Source: Halogeometricum sp. S1BR25-6 (GTDB lineage: Archaea > Halobacteriota > Halobacteria > Halobacteriales > Haloferacaceae). Taken from it: a stretch of 64,000 bases of DNA. The notes below the pieces were generated by a model. That model did not search any database. It worked only from the letters and a program-made list of their open reading frames with translations, and had not been told where the DNA came from. The position numbers and the translations under genes are program-made. Below, one piece after another: positions 44,592 to 55,758 of the stretch (position 1 is the stretch's first letter; each line of letters starts with the position of its first letter). The DNA lies in NCBI RefSeq assembly GCF_031624495.1, contig NZ_JAMQOP010000001.1, forward strand, positions 1,054,001 through 1,118,000, given 5' to 3'.

Positions 44592-44618
44592 GAACCCGTC
44601 GCTCTGCTCTTCGTCGTA

Positions 44619-44700
44619 ATTCGCGGGAGAAGTAAGCCGGTGGAGAGGATTGTGAACTACGGTCGCTCACTGCGTTCGCTCTCTAGTTCAAATCCCTCCA
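44619..44700. repeat. degenerate att-like copy folded as an inverted pair
   Basis: 44619-44651 nearly repeats 44759-44791 (shared ATTCGCGGGAGA, then GTAAGCCGGTGGAG). Unlike the second copy it has extra bases (GGAGAGGATT). It is followed, after about 25 bp, by an inverted tRNA-like end at 44684-44700 (TAGTTCAAATCCCTCC). The two arms would pair imperfectly. I read it as a scar of an earlier insertion at the same tRNA, or an accessory recombinase site. Confidence 0.5.
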
Positions 44701-44773
44701 GTCGCGTACACACCCGCTCACGAGTCCGAGCACACGCTACGCGGTGCTCGTGAAGGTGATTCGCGGGAGAGGT

Positions 44774-44791
44774 AAGCCGGTGGAGGGATTT
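44774..44791. repeat. attL: 18-bp copy of the tRNA-Thr 3' end
   Basis: AAGCCGGTGGAGGGATTT is identical to 55685-55702, which covers the 3' end of the intact tRNA-Thr gene. Similarity continues weakly for about 15 bp (CACCTCGGCC versus AACCCTCGGCC). This is the expected left attachment site of an element inserted in the tRNA 3' end, with the integrase gene beginning about 90 bp inside. Confidence 0.8.
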
Positions 44792-44880
44792 TCACCTCGG
44801 CCACGCCGTCGGTCGGTTTCCTCCCTCCGTCGTATGGTCTCAAGGCGGGACCCGCCAGCAGACGCATACCGCGCCAGACC

Positions 44881-45888
44881 ATGCAAGAGAAAAACATCCC
44901 TCCGCATGATGGAGTACAGCGGTACCTGAACGACCGGAAACCCGAGCTCTCACAGAAGAGTCTCTACAACTACCGAATCTCCGTGAACCAGTTCGCAGAC
45001 TGGTGCACCGACCAGAACATCCGTTACCTGCGAGAACTCGACGGCGACCTCATCGCCCAGTTCAAAGACTACCGACTCGAACAGGTAGCAACGATAACCG
45101 CACGCAACGATATGCGGGTCATCAAGAACTTTATCGAGTTCTGTGAGTCTATCCACGCCGTCTTCAGTGGCCTTGCCGAGCTCGTCCGTATTCCGAAGAC
45201 GACCGAGCAGGACGAGATATGTGACGACTTCCTCACGAAAGAAGAGGCCGACGCGATACTCGAATTCCTCGGAAAGCACCAGTACGCCAGTCACCGCCAC
45301 GTTATCCTGCTCCTCCTTTGGAAGACGGGAGCTCGAATCAGTGGGCTTCGTACTCTCGACGTAGACGACATAGACTCAACCGGTCCTACCGTACAGATTC
45401 GACACCGACCAGATACCGGTACGCCTCTGAAGAACGACGAGAGGGGAGAGCGGAACGTGTTCGTGACGGAGGAAACGATGGAGGTGATACAGGACTTCAT
45501 CGAACACCAGCGCCCGAACACGACGGACGAATACGACAGGAAGCCTCTCATTGCGACGAGACACGGTCGGGCGGCACACACGACGATACAACGGCACGTC
45601 TACTCTGCGACCCGTCCCTGCAACTACAACGGCGGGAACTGCCCGTGGGACAAGAGACCGGAGACGTGCGAAGCAAACACTTGGGATGGAGCGTCGAAGT
45701 GTGAAGGTTCAGTAAGTCCTCATGCGCTACGGAGAGGATACGTGACCGCGGCACGTAACGCTGGTCAGCCTAAGGACGTGACCGGGGAGAGAGTCAACAT
45801 GAGCGGCCGTGTCCTCGACAAGCACTACGACAAAGGCAACCACCAAGAGAAAGCTAATCGCCGCCAAGACCACCTGAGGGACATATGA
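44881..45888 (+). CDS. tyrosine recombinase/integrase
   Basis: 335 aa. The N-terminal SAM-like DNA-binding domain (about 1-105) is followed by a catalytic domain with R152 (KTGARISGL), H281 and R284 (SPHALRRGY) and the nucleophile Y316 (VLDKHYDKG). Between the beta region and the HxxR motif is a four-cysteine insert (C247, C254, C263, C274) that could bind zinc, as I recall in many haloarchaeal integrases. It is adjacent to attL, so it is the element's own integrase. Confidence 0.92.
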   Translation: MQEKNIPPHDGVQRYLNDRKPELSQKSLYNYRISVNQFADWCTDQNIRYLRELDGDLIAQFKDYRLEQVATITARNDMRVIKNFIEFCESIHAVFSGLAELVRIPKTTEQDEICDDFLTKEEADAILEFLGKHQYASHRHVILLLLWKTGARISGLRTLDVDDIDSTGPTVQIRHRPDTGTPLKNDERGERNVFVTEETMEVIQDFIEHQRPNTTDEYDRKPLIATRHGRAAHTTIQRHVYSATRPCNYNGGNCPWDKRPETCEANTWDGASKCEGSVSPHALRRGYVTAARNAGQPKDVTGERVNMSGRVLDKHYDKGNHQEKANRRQDHLRDI

Positions 45889-45935
45889 ACGACCAATACG
45901 GTCCACTTCAGAAAAGGGGCGGGGAGGGCCGATGA
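45885..45935 (+). CDS. 16-aa ORF linking integrase to the next gene
   Basis: Its ATG (45885) overlaps the integrase stop, and its TGA (45933-45935) overlaps the next gene's ATG (45932), a double ATGA chain. GGGGAGGG inside it provides a ribosome-binding site for the next gene. It may be a coupling device rather than a functional peptide. Confidence 0.3.
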   Translation: MNDQYGPLQKRGGEGR

Positions 45936-46279
45936 GCGACAGAGAACCCATTGATGACGAGCTAATGGGATTCCAGCGTATAGACCCCAAAGAGGTAGAG
46001 GTCGGCATGGAGGTGAAAGTTCTCTATGATTCTACATTTGGGGGTCAAGTGTACCGAGAGGGTACAGTAACCGAGTTTGAATCAATGGACACTGACTTTG
46101 GAAAGCACGTCCGAATCGAGATGCGGCACTCCGAACATCGCGCCACCATCATCGGTGGGTCCATCAGGGAACACGGGGGGCGGACGACCGAAACATACCG
46201 AGTCAGCTCAGAATCGTCTGTACGAACGACAGGTGTCGGAGAACTCCTTGCGATGTACGGGGACCCAGAATCCATCTGA
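45932..46279 (+). CDS. element protein of unknown function
   Basis: 115 aa, polar and beta-rich, without signal or membrane segment. The N-terminal DPKEVEVGMEVKVLYDSTFGG and the following EGTVTEFESMD suggest a small barrel-like domain. No family is recognised. A strong GGGGAGGG sequence precedes the ATG, and it is translationally linked to the integrase by a 16-codon ORF. Confidence 0.6.
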   Translation: MSDREPIDDELMGFQRIDPKEVEVGMEVKVLYDSTFGGQVYREGTVTEFESMDTDFGKHVRIEMRHSEHRATIIGGSIREHGGRTTETYRVSSESSVRTTGVGELLAMYGDPESI

Positions 46280-46386
46280 GGTGTCATCAGGGCGAAAATA
46301 GATTTTCTGGTACTACCCTCTATTACTGCCATTCATTCCTCAATGGGGCCTGTTTGCGCTAAACGAGACGGAATACGCAAGCAGAG

Positions 46387-46548
46387 ATGTACGTGGTTGA
46401 GAGGCCTGATGTGCTCTTCGGGAACAGGTTCACCTTTGAGGGCGAGTGCTTCCGTGAGACACTATCCGACTTCCTTAGGACCATGAGAGAAGGGAAGAAG
46501 GGGGAAGATGAGGGGAAAGGAAGGAGGAGGAAACGAGGGGGGACTTAG
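46387..46548 (+). CDS. small 53-aa ORF with charged tail
   Basis: ATG 46387 to TAG 46548. The first 33 residues (MYVVERPDVLFGNRFTFEGE...) look like a compact domain. The last 20 are K, R, E and G only, because the frame runs into the purine-rich tract. An overlapping frame from ATG 46343 (47 aa) is an alternative. No family is recognised, so the call is tentative. Confidence 0.35.
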   Translation: MYVVERPDVLFGNRFTFEGECFRETLSDFLRTMREGKKGEDEGKGRRRKRGGT

Positions 46549-46780
46549 GGGGGAGTAATGGTAGGTAGTAGGAAAGGGGTTCCAGATAGGGGAAGTAGGG
46601 AAGAGAGCTCTATACTGCGAGAAGGCGTTCTCTCTAAGAGACAGAAGAGATAGTAAGAGATGACGGTAAGAGGTAGTAAGAGATAGAAGAGAGGACTGTT
46701 GAGAGATACAGTTCGGAGAACTGCTAACAGCGAGAACGAGAGTACCAAAGGTACCGTTCAGAGATTGTAAGAGGTCTGAA
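46483..46780. repeat. long purine-rich tract
   Basis: For about 300 bp the plus strand is overwhelmingly A and G, with short direct repeats such as TAGTAAGAGAT at about 46650 and 46675. Frames here are shadows of the bias and not protein-like. Possible meanings are a structured (triplex-prone) region, an origin-like element or a non-coding RNA; the sequence alone does not decide. Confidence 0.55.
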
Positions 46781-47145
46781 TGAGTAATAGGAAGGACTGA
46801 CGGTCTGAGCGGTATTGACACCGAGCTCGCTACCCAAAACCCTCGTAACGACCAAGTCGTAGTAATAGTCGGCTATCTCGAATGTGTTCTGTACCAGAGA
46901 GTCTGCAACAGAAACCTCTCAGAGCTCGCCACGTTCGCTCTGTTGCGTTTCATTTGCTTCTGTGAGGTTTAACTCATGTTGGACAAGAAACGCAACTGGA
47001 AGCAATCTGGGGCGTCTCAGACGGACCAGCGTTCGGTATCTCGGTTTCCTTTGTTCCGGTCTTGGTCCGCAGACTCCTGTCAGAGTACAAGGGAAGTCCA
47101 TAAGAATCGCTCTGGAAACCTGTTCAGTCGGCGCTTCTCGCTGTT
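46549..47145. other. gene-poor stretch of the element
   Basis: After the purine tract, 46781-47145 has several overlapping open frames on the plus strand (for example from ATG 46976). None has protein-like composition: all are rich in S, R and C with no hydrophobic core. I see no RNA gene. Confidence 0.4.
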
Positions 47146-47319
47146 ATGGGATTCGTGCCAGATACTACTGATAGAACAGGCCTATACGATTACATAGTTA
47201 AGGAATATGAGGATGGATGGGTGGTTGTTGAGACCGATATATGGTACACAGGGATGAGAAACAGAGTGAGATTAATCACTGCTCTCTTACGAGGTATCTT
47301 ATCTGCGAGAAGGGGTTGA
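47146..47319 (+). CDS. small 57-aa ORF
   Basis: ATG 47146 to TGA 47319. The peptide (MGFVPDTTDRTGLYDYIVKE, later GMRNRVRLITALLRGI) has an even composition and an amphipathic C-terminal helix, so it is protein-like. A second, startless frame at about 47354-47440 encodes a related pattern (YEGIRNRLSELL), suggesting a decayed duplicate. No family is recognised. Confidence 0.4.
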   Translation: MGFVPDTTDRTGLYDYIVKEYEDGWVVVETDIWYTGMRNRVRLITALLRGILSARRG

Positions 47320-47458
47320 CCGAAGAGCCAAAGAAGAGAGTGAAGAGAATGGTGGGGAATCGCTTCTCGCAGTTACAAGGTTCTCGTTACTGTCTCTGCT
47401 TACGAAGGAATACGGAATCGTCTATCGGAACTCCTTACCATATCTAATATACGGTGGT

Positions 47459-48058
47459 TTATATACCCCCCATCTCATCATCGTAAGAGTCTACAAGGTC
47501 AGGTTCTCTGTCGTCGAAAGGCCGCGTTATCAAATGATTACGGCGTTCAATATCTGATTGGAACCGCCCGAAGTACTTCGCGAATTTCTCGTCACTAATG
47601 TCGTATGTCTCTAATGCTTCCCTGAACCATCGGTTCATCTCAGACGAGTTTGGGTGGCATTCAAGTCCACTTTTCCATCCTACATACGCACACGCCACGA
47701 GTGCAACAGCCACCATGCCTCTGCCCTTAGAGCCACGGACTTCGTAGCGCCTGTAGTCCAATTGATTGAATAGTTGCTTCGCCCATTTCTTCTGTCCGTC
47801 GCTTAGTATGACGCGGCTGGCAACATTATCGAACAATAAGACGTTCGGCTGTTGTCGCGCCCATTCTCTATCCGCCCAAGTATCGTGCCGGTCAGTCGGG
47901 TCACGAGTATGGGTCCCTTTGTGATAGTTCAGCAATAGGGCGCAGAGGTCTCGGTGATTGTCTTTACCATCGTATCTCCACGCAAACGGCACATCTTTTA
48001 CGTCGAAAGTAGTTCGGTACGGCGGTTCGTATCCGAGATATGAGATTGGTTGACTCAT
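47459..48058 (-). CDS. element protein of unknown function, possibly cyclin-like
   Basis: 199 aa. It begins MSQPISYLGYEPPYRTTF. The middle (SDGQKKWAKQLFNQLDYRRYEVRGSKGRGMVAVALVACAYVG) is helical and vaguely resembles the cyclin-type repeats of transcription factor B, followed by an acidic C-terminus. No enzymatic motif is seen. The resemblance is weak and may be chance. It is divergent from the leader-A1 promoter. Confidence 0.55.
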   Translation of the reverse strand: MSQPISYLGYEPPYRTTFDVKDVPFAWRYDGKDNHRDLCALLLNYHKGTHTRDPTDRHDTWADREWARQQPNVLLFDNVASRVILSDGQKKWAKQLFNQLDYRRYEVRGSKGRGMVAVALVACAYVGWKSGLECHPNSSEMNRWFREALETYDISDEKFAKYFGRFQSDIERRNHLITRPFDDREPDLVDSYDDEMGGI

Positions 48059-48357
48059 GTTATTCTTGGGAGGTGAGAAAACCCGTAGAAGACTCTCAGG
48101 AATCTAAGTCCGGTGAGAGCCGATTACTGCTCCCCCCTTTTACTAACAACGTGAGACGTATAAATAGTTGTCTGGGGAGAATGTACTTCATTGCCGAACT
48201 TGCGACGGACGAGTTCTCGCTGTATTCGGACTCCGTGCAGACCATGATAGCCAAAAGCCAATCCGAGCTAAATTCCATATTTGCAGAACGCTTTAGTATC
48301 CTGTCGTTGTATTCACAGGTGTCTCCCAACAGAAAATAAAGAGGAGACAGCCAACAA
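48059..48357 (+). promoter_or_regulatory. leader A, copy 1: promoter and conserved leader
   Basis: 48131-48228 aligns without gaps to 51631-51728; I count about 82 of 98 identical bases. It holds a run of C then TTTTA, a consensus tataaata box at 48159-48166, and a near-identical stretch GACGAGTTCTCGC at 48208-48220. The predicted transcript start is near 48188, so the conserved block is the 5' end of the RNA, about 170 nt before the next gene. GAGGAG precedes the ATG at 48358. A short frame from ATG 48181 (52 codons) begins at or before the predicted start, so I do not call it a gene. Confidence 0.6.
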
Positions 48358-49344
48358 ATGACAGTCACATACTGTCCAATCATCCGAAACGGACCGAACG
48401 AGAAGGAAGTAATCCAGAGCTTCGGCGGCTTCTCGCACTTCGAAGATACAAAGTTTGAGCGACCGCTTCATCCGATAGTTGAAGTCCAGTCAGTAGACGA
48501 CCTCCAAGCACTCCCACTGTATGAGGACGCAGGAGAGAGAGTCTACATCGACCTTCCCGTGGCCCATACCGAAAGAGCGACAAAGCTCACAGAAGGGGTC
48601 ACTGCGACTCTGAACAAACACGGAAGCCGTGAGGAGTTCTTCCGAGAACACTCAGACCAGATTGGGTTCCCATTAATCTCCAGCCTTCTGGAAGCTCGAC
48701 AGGCCCCTGTAGAGTACGGAGTTCATCTCTCAGTTCATCGAGCCTTGGAAGACAAGTTCGATAGGATAGGTCACCGGCTTATGATTCGGTCTCTGAAGCC
48801 GGGACTGACTGACAAGCAGAAAGAAGCACTTCGTGAGTTAGCAGAAGTCACTCGTCCGGACGAGGATGTGATGATGTTCGATATTGTGGACAGCGAACGG
48901 GGTGAAGAGAGGCGAGCTGAGAAGGACATACGGTTCCTCTCGAACTTGTTTGACGGATACGAGACAGGGGTCCTCAATGCATTTGACCCGATGAACGGTC
49001 AGACGAAGAATCGAAGTCCCGACTTAGCCGACCGCTACAACTGCGACTTTTTCGGAGACTACGCCATTGACCAACGCTTCCCGCCGAAGATGGGTGGTCG
49101 TCCGAAGTCCGTGAAGCTACGTCACTACCATCCAGAACAGCGTGACGTAGCGGTATTTCCGGGGAAAGACTACGCTGTCGCAGGAAGGGACCTTCTGGGA
49201 TGGGACGAGTGGGACAGAGACCACTGCAACCACTGTCGGCAAATCTCTTCACTCATACAGCAGGGTAAGGGGAACGACTTCAACCGCTGGAAGCAAGCTC
49301 GGATGGGTCACTACATTCATTCTGTGGTCCACGGAGACGCCTAA
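48358..49344 (+). CDS. beta-protein-like (phage) family, tentative
   Basis: 328 aa. It opens MTVTYCPIIRNGPNEKEV, then HPIVEVQSVDD and VYIDLPVAHTE. It ends with a CNHCRQI cysteine pair and a FNRWKQARMGHYIHSV segment. The order of a Y-x-P-I-I strand, an I-V-E-V strand, D-L-P and a terminal C-x-x-C/W/H region recalls the phage T4 beta-protein family, a TIM-barrel-like protein found in phages and defence islands. This is from memory and low certainty. A membrane-protein gene follows 2 bp later. Confidence 0.6.
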   Translation: MTVTYCPIIRNGPNEKEVIQSFGGFSHFEDTKFERPLHPIVEVQSVDDLQALPLYEDAGERVYIDLPVAHTERATKLTEGVTATLNKHGSREEFFREHSDQIGFPLISSLLEARQAPVEYGVHLSVHRALEDKFDRIGHRLMIRSLKPGLTDKQKEALRELAEVTRPDEDVMMFDIVDSERGEERRAEKDIRFLSNLFDGYETGVLNAFDPMNGQTKNRSPDLADRYNCDFFGDYAIDQRFPPKMGGRPKSVKLRHYHPEQRDVAVFPGKDYAVAGRDLLGWDEWDRDHCNHCRQISSLIQQGKGNDFNRWKQARMGHYIHSVVHGDA

Positions 49345-49346
49345 GA

Positions 49347-49622
49347 ATGGATTTGAGGTCAGCGGTGATGACCCTCCTTCTCGCGCCATTCGGAGCAGTG
49401 CTATTCGGTGCTTGCTGGAGAATCGTTGATACGGTATTTCGGGCGACTCGACCAGAGACAACAGGGCATTGGGGTCAACTTGCAGACCAGCTGTACGCCT
49501 CATCAAATTTCGCTTTCAACCTGCTCAGTCTGGCCTCTGACATAGAACTACTGATTGCAATGACCGTTGTTCTCGGTGGATTATGGGCCGTTTTTAGTGG
49601 TCTTGATTCGAGTGGCTTCTAA
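49347..49622 (+). CDS. small two-helix membrane protein
   Basis: 91 aa with hydrophobic segments at about 5-30 and 66-86, the second preceded by a polar loop. It starts 2 bp after the stop of the 328-aa gene, so the two form an operon. The pair sits exactly between leader A and leader B of module 1. No family is recognised. Confidence 0.6.
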   Translation: MDLRSAVMTLLLAPFGAVLFGACWRIVDTVFRATRPETTGHWGQLADQLYASSNFAFNLLSLASDIELLIAMTVVLGGLWAVFSGLDSSGF

Positions 49623-49648
49623 CGAACTCCATATAGCCTCTATTTTCT

Positions 49649-49788
49649 AAAAATTCTGCGAGCTACTTACACATTTTCTGACTCTGCGCGAAGCTGTGGT
49701 GTCACAACCGTACCCCATAAGGCCGACACTGGTGACAGAGTCGGACAGTATACTCTTGATAAAGTGTATCATACAGGAACCAACGACA
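49649..49788 (+). promoter_or_regulatory. leader B, copy 1
   Basis: The 37-bp core at 49674-49710 (TTTTCTGACTCTGCGCGAAG...) matches 51788-51824 with two differences. Weaker similarity extends on both sides up to the ATG, including a shared ATACTCTTGA. Promoter-like AT-rich sequence (agtatactcttgataa) sits about 30-40 bp before the ATG at 49789. Confidence 0.55.
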
Positions 49789-49968
49789 ATGTTGACTGAC
49801 GACAGTATCCCGCGAGGGGAACCGTATCTGACGAACAGGGAAGGAGCGTTAGAGAACATAGACAGGGTGATGAGCAACCTAGAGGCAGAGGCGAAGTTGA
49901 TGAGCGACACTATTGGCCGCTTTGAGGGGAATGTGAGATACGAAGTTAGAAGGACCAAGACTTCCTGA
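49789..49968 (+). pseudogene. truncated coiled-coil paralogue (copy 1)
   Basis: The 59-aa frame (TDDSIPRGEPYLTN, then LENIDRVMSNLEAEAKLM) is a paralogue of the 112-aa protein at 51902 (ADDTTPEGELSSTN, then LDSLNETMRTVEAEVEGL). Copy 1 stops at TGA 49966-49968. In the next frame the DNA goes on to encode a hydrophobic stretch (FLILLSFLFTG), like the membrane helix that ends copy 2. It looks as if an internal deletion and a frameshift removed the anchor. It might instead work as a short soluble form. Confidence 0.5.
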
Positions 49969-50121
49969 TTCTGCTGTCATTCCTCTTCACAGGATAGGTG
50001 ATTCTGCTCTCTGTCTCCTTTTGACGGCGTAGGCTCAGAAAGCAGACAACGATGGAAAGAACCACCCACATACCCTGAAATACAGAAAAGTCTAAATATA
50101 CCCATGTGTATCTCAATCAAT

Positions 50122-50672
50122 ATGTCCGAACGAGCGGTGTCAACAACTCCTCAGGAAAGTTCGTTCCTCGCAGAAGGAGAAAGAATGGAATTGAATTGGA
50201 TGGGTACACTCAGACAAGGTGAAGATGAATATCCAGCGGAATTCGTAGCTACCATAATAGACTAATCTTCTCATTTGGAGGAGGCCATTTCAAAGATATT
50301 GGCCTAAAGCATGTAGAATCGGTGGAAGTAGGAACAGATGTTCAAGAGGAAACCAAAGGGACGGACCCAGACATGGTTATAGCCATAGGAATAACATTTA
50401 GCATAGTGGGTATCGGTGGGGCAGCCATGGGTGGATTTAGTGCTGTTGCAATACTTTTTGGTCTCCTGTCGTTGGGAATTGGAAGCTATACCTGTCACTA
50501 CGGGAAGTCGAATTACAAAGAACTCAAAGACAGTTATGAGGTTACCGAACATCTAGTTTATCACATTCTGATGAGAACGACGGCAACAAGTCCGTTTTCT
50601 ATGCCGATATACATCGAAACGAAAGAAAACATTGGACCAGACCTCAGTAGGTTAGTTCAAGAAACTAATTGA
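50122..50672 (+). pseudogene. frameshifted PH-like membrane protein gene
   Basis: ATG 50122 opens 47 codons ending at TAA 50263-50265 (…EYPAEFVATIID). Stepping back one base there gives an uninterrupted frame to 50672: LIFSFGGGHFKDIGLKHVES, then two hydrophobic helices and a polar C-terminus. The join restores a coherent PH-like strand pattern (…ATIID-LIFSFGGG…VESVEVG). A TATA-like taaatata at 50091-50098 is at leaderless spacing from ATG 50122. A GTG at 50322 could start the last 116 codons alone. The cause may be a single-base loss, programmed -1 shifting or a sequence error. Confidence 0.6.
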
Positions 50673-51011
50673 ACTAGTTTCTTCCTTGCCAAATTAGGAC
50701 TATCCCGTCCAGCCCTTACTTGGACTTATGCTTTCAGCCAGTTTCTGACAGAGTAAGAACGGTCAATTGGTCACGTTCTCGCGGTATCCGGACTCCACAC
50801 GGATGACTCAATAAGAACCCACGGAATCTCGGTGTGGCGACTACTCAACTACGAGTTTCAGTTCGATAAATATATTTCCATCTTGTTGGGAATTCGCTTC
50901 CTATCGCCGTTTTCTACAACTTCGTTCCGACTGGTCCGAAGGTGGTAGCAGTGTGAATACTGATGAAAGACCTTACCGGACTACCCTTTGCGTTTGGAAG
51001 TACTGGGAGAA
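50673..51011. other. 339-bp intergenic stretch
   Basis: AT-rich sequence between convergent genes. I find no open frame with protein-like composition, no tRNA-like fold and no clear repeat. An AT spot (gataaatatattt, about 50865-50877) could be a promoter, but nothing obvious follows it. Confidence 0.4.
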
Positions 51012-51284
51012 CTATCGACTTATTCTTTCAGCCGCTCCAATAGCCTCCCTTCGGAGACGTTCACTGAGTTCCTCCCATGTCGCTGCGTCAGGGTACAGCC
51101 ACCTGAGAAGGTTCAGGTGACACCTCCGACAGATGTTAAGATGAAGGTCCCATGAGTGCGTCTCACTGGGGTCATGTTCCGGAGGTCTGTCGAGAACATC
51201 TATCATGTGGTACCCATCTTCGGCGGCAAGGGGTACTCCACAGCGGGGACAACTGGCAAGCTGGTGATTGACTTTTGTAGACAT
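51012..51284 (-). CDS. small zinc-finger-like protein
   Basis: 90 aa with two CxxC pairs: CPRC (12-15) and CRRC (about 52-55), joined by a histidine-rich segment. The C-terminal helix is WEELSERLRREAIGAAER. This resembles an HNH/zinc-ribbon element without a clear catalytic histidine pattern. It is downstream of the 67-aa gene on the same strand, possibly in one transcript. Confidence 0.6.
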   Translation of the reverse strand: MSTKVNHQLASCPRCGVPLAAEDGYHMIDVLDRPPEHDPSETHSWDLHLNICRRCHLNLLRWLYPDAATWEELSERLRREAIGAAERISR

Positions 51285-51320
51285 TAGTGATGTGGTATGA
51301 ATATTCTATGCAGAGACGAT

Positions 51321-51524
51321 TCAGTCCATGATTTTCGTATAACTACTACTGATTTTGTAAGTCCAGTAAACAGCATGTTCAAATGAACTTAGGGTGGGAT
51401 AGCTACCTTCAGCAGTAGCGTGAAGGCTAACCTCTTTCCCAGATGGTATACATCCTATATCTTCGGCTTCTTGTTCGCTCACAATTCGCATTACGGTCGG
51501 CTCTGGCGGTTCAGTGATGTTCAT
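51321..51524 (-). CDS. small protein of unknown function
   Basis: 67 aa from the ATG at 51522-51524 (MNITEPPEPTVMRIVSEQE...). It is acidic in the first half and beta/helix mixed in the second, with no signal. A start further upstream would give 89 aa with an unlikely N-terminus. GGAAATACT precedes the ATG. No family is recognised. Confidence 0.45.
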   Translation of the reverse strand: MNITEPPEPTVMRIVSEQEAEDIGCIPSGKEVSLHATAEGSYPTLSSFEHAVYWTYKISSSYTKIMD

Positions 51525-51624
51525 AGTATTTCCTTTCGGGGAGGATGAGTGAGAGGAGTACCTAAAGCAAGTACTTGGATAAGTTTGCACTCTTACGCTT
51601 AATTCAGCAGTAGAACACTTGGGG

Positions 51625-51901
51625 TGTTGTTCCCCCCTTTTACCAACAACGTCAAGAGTATAAATAGTTATCTAAGATGAATGTACTGCATCGACGAACT
51701 TGCGGCGGACGAGTTCTCGCAGAATTCGCTCTCTCAAATTTCTCATAAGGGCGATTCTTGGAGAAAATCCTGCGAATGATTTACTCGTTTTCTGATTCTG
51801 CGCGAAGCTGTGGTGTCGCAACCGGCCCTTGTGAAGACGACACTCAGACAGAATAGAATACATACTCTTGACAGAGTGTGCCACATACTCTTCAGAGGGC
51901 T
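51625..51901 (+). promoter_or_regulatory. leaders A and B, copy 2, fused
   Basis: Leader A (51631-51728, tataaata at 51659-51666) is followed within about 35 bp by leader B (51762-51901, core 51788-51824). In copy 1 the same two elements are separated by two genes (48358-49622). Copy 2 therefore looks like a deletion derivative of copy 1, or copy 1 an insertion derivative of copy 2. The ATG at 51902 follows. Confidence 0.6.
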
Positions 51902-52240
51902 ATGACGGCAGACGACACCACACCGGAAGGCGAGCTGTCTTCCACGAACATCAAGAACTCCTTAGACAGTTTGAACGAGACCATGCGTACCGTCGAAGCA
52001 GAGGTTGAGGGTTTGAATTACCGGTTGGATAGTCTGGAGCGGTCGCTTGAATACAAGATTGATGACTCGACACGCCAGCTTGACCGGCAGGTAAAGAGTT
52101 CAACGAAGGATGTTGAGCGCGAGCTTGATAGCGAGTTATGGAGTCTTGATATGAAGGTCGAGACAGGTATAATGTTGCTCGGAGCGTTCCTTCTTATCGC
52201 AACACTCCTGCTTGCAAACCTCATTTTCGCCGTTCACTGA
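51902..52240 (+). CDS. coiled-coil protein with C-terminal membrane anchor
   Basis: 112 aa. Residues 15-85 are a coiled coil with heptads (LDSLNETMRTVEAEVEGL, LDSLERSLEYKI). Residues about 86-110 are one hydrophobic helix (GIMLLGAFLLIATLLLANLIF). The topology is an N-terminal rod anchored at the C-terminus. It is the intact paralogue of the 59-aa copy at 49789 and is preceded by the same leader-B sequence. Function is unknown. Confidence 0.65.
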   Translation: MTADDTTPEGELSSTNIKNSLDSLNETMRTVEAEVEGLNYRLDSLERSLEYKIDDSTRQLDRQVKSSTKDVERELDSELWSLDMKVETGIMLLGAFLLIATLLLANLIFAVH

Positions 52241-52344
52241 TGAAGTGACGATAGAATTCACTTTCTTGCTATGAGATTCGCATAAATGGACCATATACGG
52301 AGTTCAAAAATTCAAGTAATTGAACTTGGGTTGGTGACTTCTAA

Positions 52345-52962
52345 TTAGAAGTCTGAGAGGGTAGAATTATCTCGGTTTTTCCAGTCTAACTCGGCAGTCT
52401 CTCGCAGGTCCTGTAATTCTTTGTAGAACGGTTCGTTCTGTATCTCTTGATAAATTTGTTCCAGAGTATCCATCTCATCTTCAACATATTCTTCAATTTT
52501 CTCGTAGTCATCTCTTTGATAGAATTCTGGGATTCGTTTGCTTTCGTAGTCCCCATAACTACCAATAAGACAATTTCTCCATTCCGCGAACTTCTTCATA
52601 TCATCTCCCAATAACTGAGCTAAATCGACAAAAGGTGGCCCATGGCTGATATTCTCCCATACGTATTTGTCTTCCCACCCGGATGCAGAGGCAATATCGT
52701 GTTGTTGCGCTTTAACTAAGAGGAAAGGAGCGTCAAATTTGAGGACATTGAATGCAATGAACTCTTCAGCACCTCTGCTTCTTGCACGCGGAATATCCTT
52801 CCAATCATTAAGGAAAGCAAGTAACAATTCACGCTCTGACTCATATTCCCACCGTTTATATATTGATAACCCAGTACTGTCCCGCTTATATTGGATGGTC
52901 ACTATTTCGCTTGAATAAGGGCGGACTCCCGTGGTTTCAATATCGTAGCCGTACAGAGTCAT
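52345..52962 (-). CDS. DEDD-type exonuclease-like protein
   Basis: 205 aa. Motif I is YGYDIETTG (D7, E9), motif II AFNVLKFDAPFL (N72, D77), then FVDLAQLLGDD (D113), and motif III-like YEKIEEYVEDEMDTLEQ near residues 160-180. This is the RNase H-like 3'-5' exonuclease fold (DnaQ/PolB-exonuclease group). Active-site residues appear present, so it may degrade DNA or RNA. The ATG at 52962 was chosen; a GTG at 52983 would add 7 residues. It is element cargo on the minus strand. Confidence 0.6.
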   Translation of the reverse strand: MTLYGYDIETTGVRPYSSEIVTIQYKRDSTGLSIYKRWEYESERELLLAFLNDWKDIPRARSRGAEEFIAFNVLKFDAPFLLVKAQQHDIASASGWEDKYVWENISHGPPFVDLAQLLGDDMKKFAEWRNCLIGSYGDYESKRIPEFYQRDDYEKIEEYVEDEMDTLEQIYQEIQNEPFYKELQDLRETAELDWKNRDNSTLSDF

Positions 52963-53048
52963 GTGACTATTGTCAACACTCACTCAGCAAGCATCAATTC
53001 TCGGGTAGCTGAGGTCAAGATGTAATTCAGTGAGAGTTGCCTTCTACA

Positions 53049-53882
53049 TCAGTCCGTAACTGTGAGATTCCAAGTGATTCCAATCTCATCTAACCGGAAC
53101 TCGTACGTTCCAGTATAATTAAGAGAGAATTCGCCACTTTCCCAAGACCGGGACTCTCCCGCAGGGATGTTCAATCTGACCCGTTCATCGTTTGGTGTCT
53201 GCCATTCTCCTTGCTCATGTCGAATGGATGGTTTCGAAACTATGCTGTTATCGTCATCACCTATGTTCTTGAACTGTAAAGTGAATGTAATCGGCTGTCC
53301 CTTACGAATAGTAGGTGGTTTCTGAACACCAGTTAATTTCACTTCGTTGGGCGTTAGCGGCTCGACCACATCAAAAGCCAATTCTTCAAGCTCAGAGTTC
53401 TTGCCCGTAATTTCATCTCGCACAAGAATTTGTGCTGAATAGGTTCCTGTCTTCCAGTCTTTCGTGTCAAAAGAGAACCATTGTTCCCATTCGTCCTCAG
53501 TCGTATCTGCTCCTGAGAGTTGCGTATCACCTGCCTGTTGAGAGTCAACACTTGACCCGTTGTGGTATACTGTTACTTGAACAAGCTCCTCGGACTTCCC
53601 GTTGTGAATTGGAAGGGAATATCGGAGACCGATGATTGCATAACCGCCTGCACCCACAGAGGACATTTGGTTTGTCAATACGTCGCCATATTTTTCCCAT
53701 GCGCTCATCAGGCTTGAATGACTAATCCGGGGAGCTGGCGATTCTGGTGTGACGGTTGGCGTTGGTACGGGTGTCGAGGAGGGTGTCTGCGTATTCGTTT
53801 GACTTTGGGGGGCGGACGATTGTGAGGTGCACCCGGTAAGACCAGCAATGCCCACTGAAGCGAGGAACATTCGTCGTTTCAT
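53049..53882 (-). CDS. lipoprotein with C-terminal beta domain
   Basis: 277 aa. The signal is MKRRMFLASVGIAGLTGC, with the lipobox cysteine at about 18. A threonine/proline-rich linker (TPSSTPVPTPTVTPES) follows, then two beta-rich, probably immunoglobulin-like domains. It is anchored outside the cell. Function is unknown; surface lipoproteins on mobile elements can act in exclusion or cell-cell contact, which is inference. Confidence 0.7.
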   Translation of the reverse strand: MKRRMFLASVGIAGLTGCTSQSSAPQSQTNTQTPSSTPVPTPTVTPESPAPRISHSSLMSAWEKYGDVLTNQMSSVGAGGYAIIGLRYSLPIHNGKSEELVQVTVYHNGSSVDSQQAGDTQLSGADTTEDEWEQWFSFDTKDWKTGTYSAQILVRDEITGKNSELEELAFDVVEPLTPNEVKLTGVQKPPTIRKGQPITFTLQFKNIGDDDNSIVSKPSIRHEQGEWQTPNDERVRLNIPAGESRSWESGEFSLNYTGTYEFRLDEIGITWNLTVTD

Positions 53883-54014
53883 GATGACAGGTGCTTTTCC
53901 TGCCAGCATAAGGTTGTCGTATATGAAAGTCATGAACCACGACCATTGAGTGGAACCTGCCTGAACGCGAATTTCCAAACTACAGAAAAGAGAGCTTCCG
54001 GAGAAGAACGCCAC

Positions 54015-54029
54015 TCACCGCAACCAATT
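54015..54029. repeat. 15-bp direct repeat, left copy
   Basis: TCACCGCAACCAATT occurs here and at 55553-55567, both in the same orientation. The pair brackets the 422-aa nuclease-like gene (54141-55409) at about 110-145 bp on each side. This may mark the edges of a cassette that entered as a unit. Confidence 0.55.
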
Positions 54030-54140
54030 CACTTGAAAATTGGAATCCTTGAGCTTTGATTAAAAGACCCTCTCCTTATCTTAGCGTCCGGTGCCAATTC
54101 GCTCCTAAATCAAAGCGCGGTTGCTGATGAATCTCACCCT

Positions 54141-55409
54141 TCAGATTGAAGTCTCCAACATGCTGAAAAATTCATCTGGGATAGCTTTTCCCGGATTTGT
54201 ATTTAAGTGAGTAGAAAATCCAGTATATGTGCTCATTGTTCCAATATCTGTCTCGTAGTAGAGTGATTCAGTGATAATTGCGTTAAGACTCTTTGATTGC
54301 TTCAGCTGGCCATGAACTCGTTGTTCCAGCCTCTCCAGTTGAGAAACTTCGTTTCCACGATGGTCTTCAATCATGTATGAACCCATAGAGTCAACCTCGT
54401 CAGCGGGGAGCCGTACAAAAAGGACGCTCGGTGAGTGACCGGATAAGTCGCTCCTGCCCTCTTCAATAATATTCATGACTTTACTGAAGTGGTCTTTGGA
54501 GATAGTTGGAAAATCGTAGTCAATTACGTGTGCTTTTTTGATTGTTGACTTTGTAGCGGATGGTTTTATCATATGTGTGTATTCCATCCCTTTACTGAGA
54601 CGGTCGTAATCAAACGGAACCAACAGCTGTTTTATACTGTTCGGACTGATAAACTGCATAATCTGCTCAAGTTCGTCAATTGAGAGTGCAATCTCTTTCT
54701 CTCCCGTGAAATAATCTACCAGCTCAACAGTATACTTCGCTCCCTCTACTTCAAAAGTAGTCCGGGAACCTTGTTTTTGGACAATCTGTATGGCGCTTTC
54801 TGCAAGAGGTTTAACAATCTCTTCGGTAAGTGGACGCTCTCCGGATAGCCTTACAAAGAAGCTGTCCTCTCCAACGTCAATGCCCTCGTTAATTCTGTCG
54901 GAGATTTGTTTCCCGAAGTTGGATTCAATTGCGTCTGATGGACGGCGGCGCTTACATTCGATACTAATGGAAGTTCCCTCAAAACCCAGAGAAATATCGG
55001 GACCACTATCTTCGCCTTCATGTATCAACTCTGGCTCAAGACCTCGATTTTTGAGGAAAGACGCTGTCTGAAGCTCATAGACAGTTTCCCAAATATTTTC
55101 TTCTTGAATTATCCTTTCACCGAAAATATCAGAGAATGATTCGTCCACCGGCTCGCCGCTCGGAGTAACGATTGGAATATCAATTGTCTCTTGAATCGCC
55201 CTTCCCAGTATGACAAAATCTCTGACTACAGAATCAAACTCCATTTGGCCAGTTTTGAAATAATGGTTGATTCGGTTTCGGATTGTTTCAAGCCAGTCTA
55301 CCATCTCGTGCAATCCTTCGAGTTCATCTCTTTCTTCAATACCTTCAACAAGCCCAGAAAAATCTCGTTCAAAACGCATTACATCGTATGGGTCAAAGCC
55401 GCCATCCAT
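54141..55409 (-). CDS. PD-(D/E)XK nuclease-like protein
   Basis: 422 aa. A helical N-terminal domain (1-90) is followed by a candidate nuclease core: WETVYELQTASFL (E112), GPDISLGFEG (D138) and SISIECKRRRP (E151 and K153), the spacing expected of PD-(D/E)XK enzymes. The C-terminal half is alpha/beta with no recognised motif. No methyltransferase or helicase partner is adjacent. A defence or element-maintenance nuclease is a reasonable hypothesis. It is AT-rich and flanked by a 15-bp direct repeat. Confidence 0.65.
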   Translation of the reverse strand: MDGGFDPYDVMRFERDFSGLVEGIEERDELEGLHEMVDWLETIRNRINHYFKTGQMEFDSVVRDFVILGRAIQETIDIPIVTPSGEPVDESFSDIFGERIIQEENIWETVYELQTASFLKNRGLEPELIHEGEDSGPDISLGFEGTSISIECKRRRPSDAIESNFGKQISDRINEGIDVGEDSFFVRLSGERPLTEEIVKPLAESAIQIVQKQGSRTTFEVEGAKYTVELVDYFTGEKEIALSIDELEQIMQFISPNSIKQLLVPFDYDRLSKGMEYTHMIKPSATKSTIKKAHVIDYDFPTISKDHFSKVMNIIEEGRSDLSGHSPSVLFVRLPADEVDSMGSYMIEDHRGNEVSQLERLEQRVHGQLKQSKSLNAIITESLYYETDIGTMSTYTGFSTHLNTNPGKAIPDEFFSMLETSI

Positions 55410-55685
55410 CTTAGGCTGAATTGTGTATGGGAGACAATGAAGGTTCTTCAGTAACGAGATTCACTTCTCGTCTCTCTCGGTCTGAATTCTGCGACTGAAC
55501 AGCTACGCCGCTCAAATTGAGAGAATCTGTGTACAGTATAGGGTTACGTCGGTCACCGCAACCAATTGAACGAGCGACTTACCGGCAAACTACGCAGTCA
55601 GAGCGCAACAAATTGGACCGATAATCGACCGAATACTTATGGTACAGAGGTACTGTGTAGGAATTAGCGGTATGCGCGAAGCGCA
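55410..55685. other. right-end non-coding segment of the element
   Basis: 276 bp between the nuclease-like gene and the tRNA. It holds the right copy of the 15-bp direct repeat (55553-55567), an AT-rich spot that could be the promoter of the minus-strand gene, and, near the end, GCGCGAAGCGC, a short palindrome next to attR. No gene is seen. Confidence 0.5.
55553..55567. repeat. 15-bp direct repeat, right copy
   Basis: Identical to 54015-54029 (TCACCGCAACCAATT). See the left copy; spacing between copies is 1538 bp. Confidence 0.55.
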
Positions 55686-55702
55686 AGCCGGTGGAGGGAT
55701 TT
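55685..55702. repeat. attR within the tRNA-Thr 3' end
   Basis: AAGCCGGTGGAGGGATTT, identical to 44774-44791. It covers the acceptor stem and part of the T arm of the tRNA gene, so insertion restored an intact tRNA. Confidence 0.8.
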
Positions 55703-55758
55703 GAACCCTCGGCCTATTCCTTACGAAGGAATCGCTCTGCCAGCTGAGCTACACCGGC
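55686..55758 (-). tRNA. tRNA-Thr (anticodon CGT)
   Basis: Read on the minus strand it starts GCCGGTGTAGCTCAG and ends CACCGGC plus discriminator T, giving a perfect 7-bp acceptor stem. The D arm (GCTCAGCTGGCAGAGC), the anticodon stem ATTCC/GGAAT around TTCGTAA (anticodon CGT, codon ACG) and the T arm (GAGGGTTCAAATCCCTC) are all present. No intron and no encoded CCA. It is 58 bp downstream of trm5 on the same strand. Confidence 0.95.

What the first reader, a model, noticed from the sequence alone, without database searches (positions are those of the whole stretch)
48131..52240. Duplicated promoter/leader/coiled-coil module with gain or loss of a two-gene insert
Leader A (48131-48228 and 51631-51728, about 82 of 98 bases identical without gaps by hand count) and leader B (37-bp cores at 49674 and 51788) each occur twice, each time followed by paralogous coiled-coil genes. 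In copy 1 two genes (48358, 49347) lie between A and B; in copy 2 A and B are adjacent. This is an internal duplication with deletion or insertion, and the leaders are conserved more than the proteins.
Basis: seen in the sequence. Interest (0 to 1): 0.75.

Follow-up and report, generated by a model that had tools for sequence, protein, structure and literature searches.

The report
Duplicated promoter unit in archaeal element
A roughly 200-base unit made of a promoter and an untranslated stretch was copied once inside a small mobile element of a salt-loving archaeon, and the original copy was split by two inserted genes; it is a tidy case of how such elements put new cargo under an existing promoter, with a known precedent in haloarchaeal viruses.

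Summary
The repeats are real: leader A (48128-48233 / 51628-51733) is identical at 87 of 106 bases, leader B (49650-49730 / 51764-51844) at 64 of 81, far above shuffles. Both lie in a ~10.9-kb element integrated at a tRNA-Thr gene. One correction: only B precedes related coiled-coil genes; A1 precedes a distant Beta_protein-like gene. A relative in another genome (G062, locus L039) gives the direction of change. It is a ~4.9-kb element at the same tRNA-Thr, with a 79% identical integrase. There one A and one B sit side by side next to the same divergent gene, with TATA-to-B-core distance 151 nt (154 nt in copy 2) and no coiled-coil gene after B. So compact A-B is probably ancestral, copy 1 is the resident unit split by a ~1.4-kb two-gene insertion, and copy 2 is the duplicate. 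The substitution pattern and predicted start site argue against a peptide in A. A is best read as a promoter; B is an untranslated segment of unknown role. The nearest precedent is the promoter-bearing intergenic repeats of halovirus HF2. No further copies were found in samples of up to 391 haloarchaeal genomes. No expression data exist.

The parts
44772..55683 (.). integrated element bounded by tRNA-Thr 3'-end repeats; about 10.9 kb, GC 48% in a genome of about 70% GC
   Evidence: att core AAGCCGGTGGAGGGATTT at both ends; tRNA-Thr 55686-55758; GC profile; element GC 0.483
44881..45888 (+). tyrosine integrase
   Evidence: Pfam Phage_integrase E 9.6e-10; 79% identical to the integrase of L039
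47459..48058 (-). halovirus-type protein (phrog_12649 family) transcribed away from A1; function unknown
   Evidence: phrog_12649 E 4.6e-7; 50% identical homolog in L039; family relatives in haloarchaeal tailed viruses
48128..48233 (+). leader A, copy 1 (resident): C-rich block, TATAAATAG at 48159, downstream block
   Evidence: upstream flank resembles L039 (26 of 2000 shuffles as good)
48236..49619 (+). inferred insertion between A1 and B1 (borders approximate)
   Evidence: absent from copy 2 and L039; GC 0.518 against 0.46 on the right flank
48358..49344 (+). distant Beta_protein-like gene (328 aa) with a Shine-Dalgarno-like AGAGGAG upstream
   Evidence: homologs in 8 other haloarchaeal genomes; 4 of 7 aligned members match PF14350 weakly, best E 0.0036; upstream sequence
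49347..49622 (+). small hydrophobic protein (91 aa), starts 2 bases after the stop of 48358
   Evidence: ORF list; no significant family match
49650..49730 (+). leader B, copy 1
49789..49968 (+). coiled-coil gene, copy 1 (59 aa); probably truncated: another frame at its end reads FLILLSFLFTG*VILLSVSF*
51628..51733 (+). leader A, copy 2; TATAAATAG at 51659
51764..51844 (+). leader B, copy 2; TATA-to-core distance 154 nt (151 nt in L039)
51902..52240 (+). coiled-coil gene with a C-terminal hydrophobic segment, copy 2 (112 aa)

Best explanation
A and B are two parts of one compact transcription unit of about 200 bp that belongs to a small family of tRNA-Thr-integrating haloarchaeal elements. A is a promoter: a C-rich upstream block, a TATA box and a start region. 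B is an untranslated segment about 150 nt downstream of the TATA box. The original unit stood next to, and pointed away from, the phrog_12649-type gene. In this element the unit was copied 3.5 kb downstream, where A2 reads through B2 into a coiled-coil/membrane gene. The resident unit was split by insertion of a Beta_protein-like gene and a small membrane-protein gene, which now lie in the right orientation to be transcribed from A1. Shown: the repeats, their compact form in a relative, orientation, spacing, and lack of a conserved peptide in A. Inferred: promoter activity, co-transcription, the order of duplication and insertion, and any role for B.
For: Repeats far above chance. L039 has the same tRNA-Thr, an integrase 79% identical and the same neighbouring gene (50%), and exactly one A and one B side by side (those profile hits are partly circular because L039 is in the profile, but plain blastn of B1 alone gives E 8.9e-6, and the block TCCCCCCTTT is identical). 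TATA-to-B-core spacing is 154 versus 151 nt. A1's upstream flank resembles L039 (26 of 2000 shuffles as good), A2's does not (1291 of 2000), marking copy 1 as resident. The insert differs in GC, and relatives of its first gene occur elsewhere without A or B. Only one of seven changed codons in the A reading frame is synonymous. With the TATA box starting about 26 bases before the start site, as measured for HF2 repeats (PMC8707807), transcription would begin near 48185 / 51685, downstream of the ATG at 48181 / 51681. Genes 48358, 49789 and 51902 have Shine-Dalgarno-like sequences, fitting leadered or internal genes.
Against: The direction of change rests on a single relative. No expression data exist. 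The spacer between A and B is not significantly similar between copy 2 and L039. The TATA-like GATATACC of L039 is weaker than TATAAATAG. B shows no unusual folding stability, and its drawn pairs do not exceed shuffles (220 of 500), so nothing yet explains why B is conserved.
Confidence: 0.62

Rival explanations
1. A-B is the gene of a small non-coding RNA of about 150-200 nt, made from promoter A with B as its conserved 3' part; the protein genes downstream are incidental.
For: In L039 no same-strand gene follows B: the next gene ends 47 bases on, on the other strand. The TATA-to-B spacing is kept while the spacer is not. B has a 35-of-37 conserved run ahead of a probably decayed gene. Two helices can be drawn with two pairs changed on both sides.
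Against: Single-strand folds are no more stable than shuffles (z -1.4 to +1.05). With three sequences the paired changes are reached by 220 of 500 shuffles. No Rfam match.
Confidence: 0.2
2. A-B is a cis-acting DNA site of the element (replication origin, recombination or operator site), possibly used by the neighbouring phrog_12649-type protein, and not primarily a promoter.
For: Constant position next to that gene in both elements. Viral relatives of the protein lie beside an ERCC4-type nuclease gene, which hints at a DNA role. Copy 2 carries the palindrome ACTCTTGACAGAGT just after B.
Against: The TATA box and upstream block are laid out as in a promoter. The region downstream of B, with the palindrome, shows no similarity in L039. 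Nothing shows that the protein binds DNA; its single-sequence model is unusable (pLDDT 41).
Confidence: 0.1
3. A encodes a conserved small peptide (MYxIxELAxDEFSxxS).
For: An open frame is kept in both window copies.
Against: Seven of eight base differences in the frame fall on codon positions 1 and 2 and only one of seven changed codons is synonymous; the frame is not kept in L039; the predicted start site lies downstream of the ATG.
Confidence: 0.03
4. The original arrangement had the two genes between A and B, and copy 2 lost them.
For: From the window alone, duplication followed by deletion is as simple as duplication with insertion.
Against: L039 has the compact form at the orthologous place, so an independent loss there would also be needed.
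Confidence: 0.12

Closest known systems
Intergenic repeats (class I 58 bp, class II 29 bp) of halovirus HF2 and other haloferacalesviruses (PMC8707807)
   Same: Repeated intergenic sequences carrying a TATA box and flanking conserved blocks, kept in position among relatives; cloned HF2 repeats were shown to be promoters. Class II contains CCCTTTAC, resembling CCCTTTTAC in A.
   Different: No sequence homology was shown; in class II the CCCTTTAC nearly abuts the TATA box, in A it lies about 15 bases further upstream. A-B is in a small integrated element, has a second conserved segment B, and one copy is split by genes.
tRNA-integrating haloarchaeal elements with tyrosine recombinases and variable cargo
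   Same: Integrase at one end, tRNA 3'-end repeats at both borders, cargo differing between relatives (L039 against the window).
   Different: No replication or virion genes were recognised; the A-B unit was found only in the tRNA-Thr pair described here.
Beta_protein family (PF14350)
   Same: Four of seven aligned homologs of 48358 match it weakly.
   Different: The window protein itself gives no Pfam match, so it is at most a distant relative.

Membership tests
HF2-type promoter-bearing intergenic repeats | repeated AT-containing intergenic motif with TATA box | tested here: met
   A1 and A2 share GTATAAATAGTT at a fixed distance from the C-rich block
HF2-type promoter-bearing intergenic repeats | sequence match to the class II repeat (TATATAAACCCTTTACCATTAATAG) | tested here: not met
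   only the CCCTTT(T)AC core is alike and its distance to the TATA box differs
HF2-type promoter-bearing intergenic repeats | promoter activity in a reporter assay | not testable with these tools
   no expression data
tRNA-integrated element with tyrosine recombinase | integrase gene plus tRNA 3'-end repeat at both borders | tested here: met
Beta_protein (PF14350) | score above Pfam's cut-off | tested here: not met
   window protein has no hit; best relative E 0.0036
structured non-coding RNA | conserved pairing supported by compensatory changes beyond controls | tested here: inconclusive
   two pairs changed on both sides, but 220 of 500 shuffles do as well with three sequences
conserved small peptide gene in A | synonymous changes prevail in the reading frame | tested here: not met
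   one of seven changed codons synonymous

The most novel reading that the evidence does not exclude
A-B is a new family of small regulatory RNA of haloarchaeal integrative elements, made from its own promoter, which was duplicated and then served as a landing site that places incoming cargo genes under the element's control.
Probability: 0.18. Interest if true: 0.55.

Novelty: new member of a known kind. Interest (0 to 1): 0.36.

Why it matters
It catches an integrative element recruiting cargo under a resident promoter, with both the split and the unsplit unit in the same element and an unsplit reference in a relative. It also defines a short, testable regulatory unit (A-B) and links it to a halovirus-type gene of unknown function. 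It does not overturn anything known.

Tried and rejected
Short A-like matches in four other genomes (G169, G120, G119, G044) were rejected: they cover only 29-39 bases in GC-rich chromosomal DNA, without TATA box or upstream block. Two exact 20-mer B matches in genome contigs lie in a Rhodobacteraceae and a Bradyrhizobium contig; they were taken as chance and not followed. Three weak B-model hits (E 0.02-0.04 per genome) are at the level expected for 167 genomes. No A, B or close protein relatives in viral contigs, nor DNA matches in phages or plasmids. A TFIIB-like (cyclin-box) fold for the phrog_12649-type protein was suspected from its sequence, but neither the profile search of solved structures nor the structure model (pLDDT 41) supports it, so no fold search was made. 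Literature searches for Beta_protein gave nothing useful.

Full report
OBSERVATION. The repeats were checked directly. In 25 dinucleotide-preserving shuffles of 47.4-52.4 kb the best ungapped repeat scored at most 16.2; A scores 64.2 and B 43.6. Against the whole genome A2 finds A1 at E 6.7e-24 and B2 finds B1 at E 3.5e-16, with no third copy of either.

CONTEXT. The finding lies in an integrated element of about 10.9 kb. Its GC is 48% in a chromosome of about 70%. It has a tyrosine integrase at the left, a tRNA-Thr gene at the right, and an 18-base tRNA 3'-end repeat at both borders.

GENES. After A1 come a 328-residue gene (48358) and a 91-residue hydrophobic protein gene (49347), then B1 and a 59-residue coiled-coil gene. 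After A2 comes B2 and a 112-residue coiled-coil gene with a C-terminal hydrophobic stretch. The two coiled-coil proteins are related over their first 53 residues (15 identical; score 78 against at most 56 in 1000 shuffles). Copy 1 looks truncated, since another frame at its end reads a hydrophobic stretch broken by a stop. The 328-residue protein belongs to a family with members in eight other haloarchaeal genomes of 391 searched; four of seven aligned members match Pfam Beta_protein weakly (best E 0.0036). Several of these lie next to large genes that look like restriction-modification or helicase genes as judged by eye from their sequences, not by a family search. None has A or B nearby.

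THE KEY RELATIVE. Searching 232 genomes with the protein of the gene divergent from A1 (47459-48058) gave a 50% identical homolog in G062. Locus L039 around it holds an element of about 4.9 kb at the same tRNA-Thr, with a 79% identical integrase. Next to the homolog stand one A and one B, adjacent, with no coiled-coil gene: the next gene is on the opposite strand and ends 47 bases beyond B. The TATA-to-B-core distance is 151 nt there and 154 nt in copy 2. The flank upstream of A1 resembles the L039 flank (26 of 2000 shuffles as good), that of A2 does not (1291 of 2000). Copy 1 is therefore most likely the resident unit, and its two genes an insertion of about 1.4 kb. The spacer between A and B is not itself significantly conserved, so the exact insertion borders are uncertain, and the whole polarity rests on this one relative.

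WHAT A AND B ARE. A has a C-rich block, then GTATAAATAGTT. HF2 repeats start transcription about 26 bases after the beginning of the TATA box (PMC8707807), which would put the start near 48185 and 51685, after the ATG of the small frame. Differences within that frame are mostly at codon positions 1 and 2. Both points argue against a peptide. B shows no unusual folding energy; drawn helices have two pairs changed on both sides, but 220 of 500 shuffles do as well. B's role is open. Rfam finds only the tRNA in the region.

SPREAD. Blast searches with A and B in 170 and 391 genomes, and a B model in 167 and 83 genomes, found only the two window copies and L039 (the last by the model only). These sets overlap. 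The genomes are samples, one per species, and metagenomes were not searched.

RELATION TO KNOWN SYSTEMS. Promoter-bearing intergenic repeats are established in halovirus HF2 (PMC8707807). The class II repeat shares CCCTTT(T)AC with A but with different spacing to the TATA box, so this is an analogy, not membership. The 47459-type protein belongs to a family found in haloarchaeal tailed viruses, where two inspected genomes have it beside an ERCC4-type nuclease gene.

VERDICT. The finding is real, correctly placed and correctly read as a duplication with an insertion; the relative turns 'gain or loss' into a probable gain. A as a promoter is likely but untested, and B is unexplained.

Noticed in passing
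window 50122-50672: Probably one frameshifted gene: MSERAV...EFVATIID ends at a stop and another frame continues NRLIFSFGGGHFKDIGLKHVES... to 50672.
   Followed up: partly
window 47459-48058 and viral relatives (L053, L054): Protein family phrog_12649, of unknown function, occurs in small integrative elements and in haloarchaeal tailed viruses, where it adjoins an ERCC4-type nuclease gene.
   Followed up: partly
window 46250-46999: Strongly G-rich strand (GC skew about 0.34-0.36) with no convincing gene, between the integrase side and 47459.
   Followed up: no
window 44600-44656: A degenerate extra copy of the tRNA-end repeat 140 bases left of the left border, possibly from an earlier integration.
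   Followed up: no
window 54141-55409 and 52345-52983: Cargo genes that look like a nuclease-type protein (by eye) and an RNase H-like exonuclease (Pfam RNase_H_2 E 5.4e-5).
   Followed up: no
L025 8820-9344 and 7449-7865: The Beta_protein-like gene of this genome is split into two pieces about 950 bases apart with an opposite-strand ORF between them, which looks like a transposase insertion.
   Followed up: no
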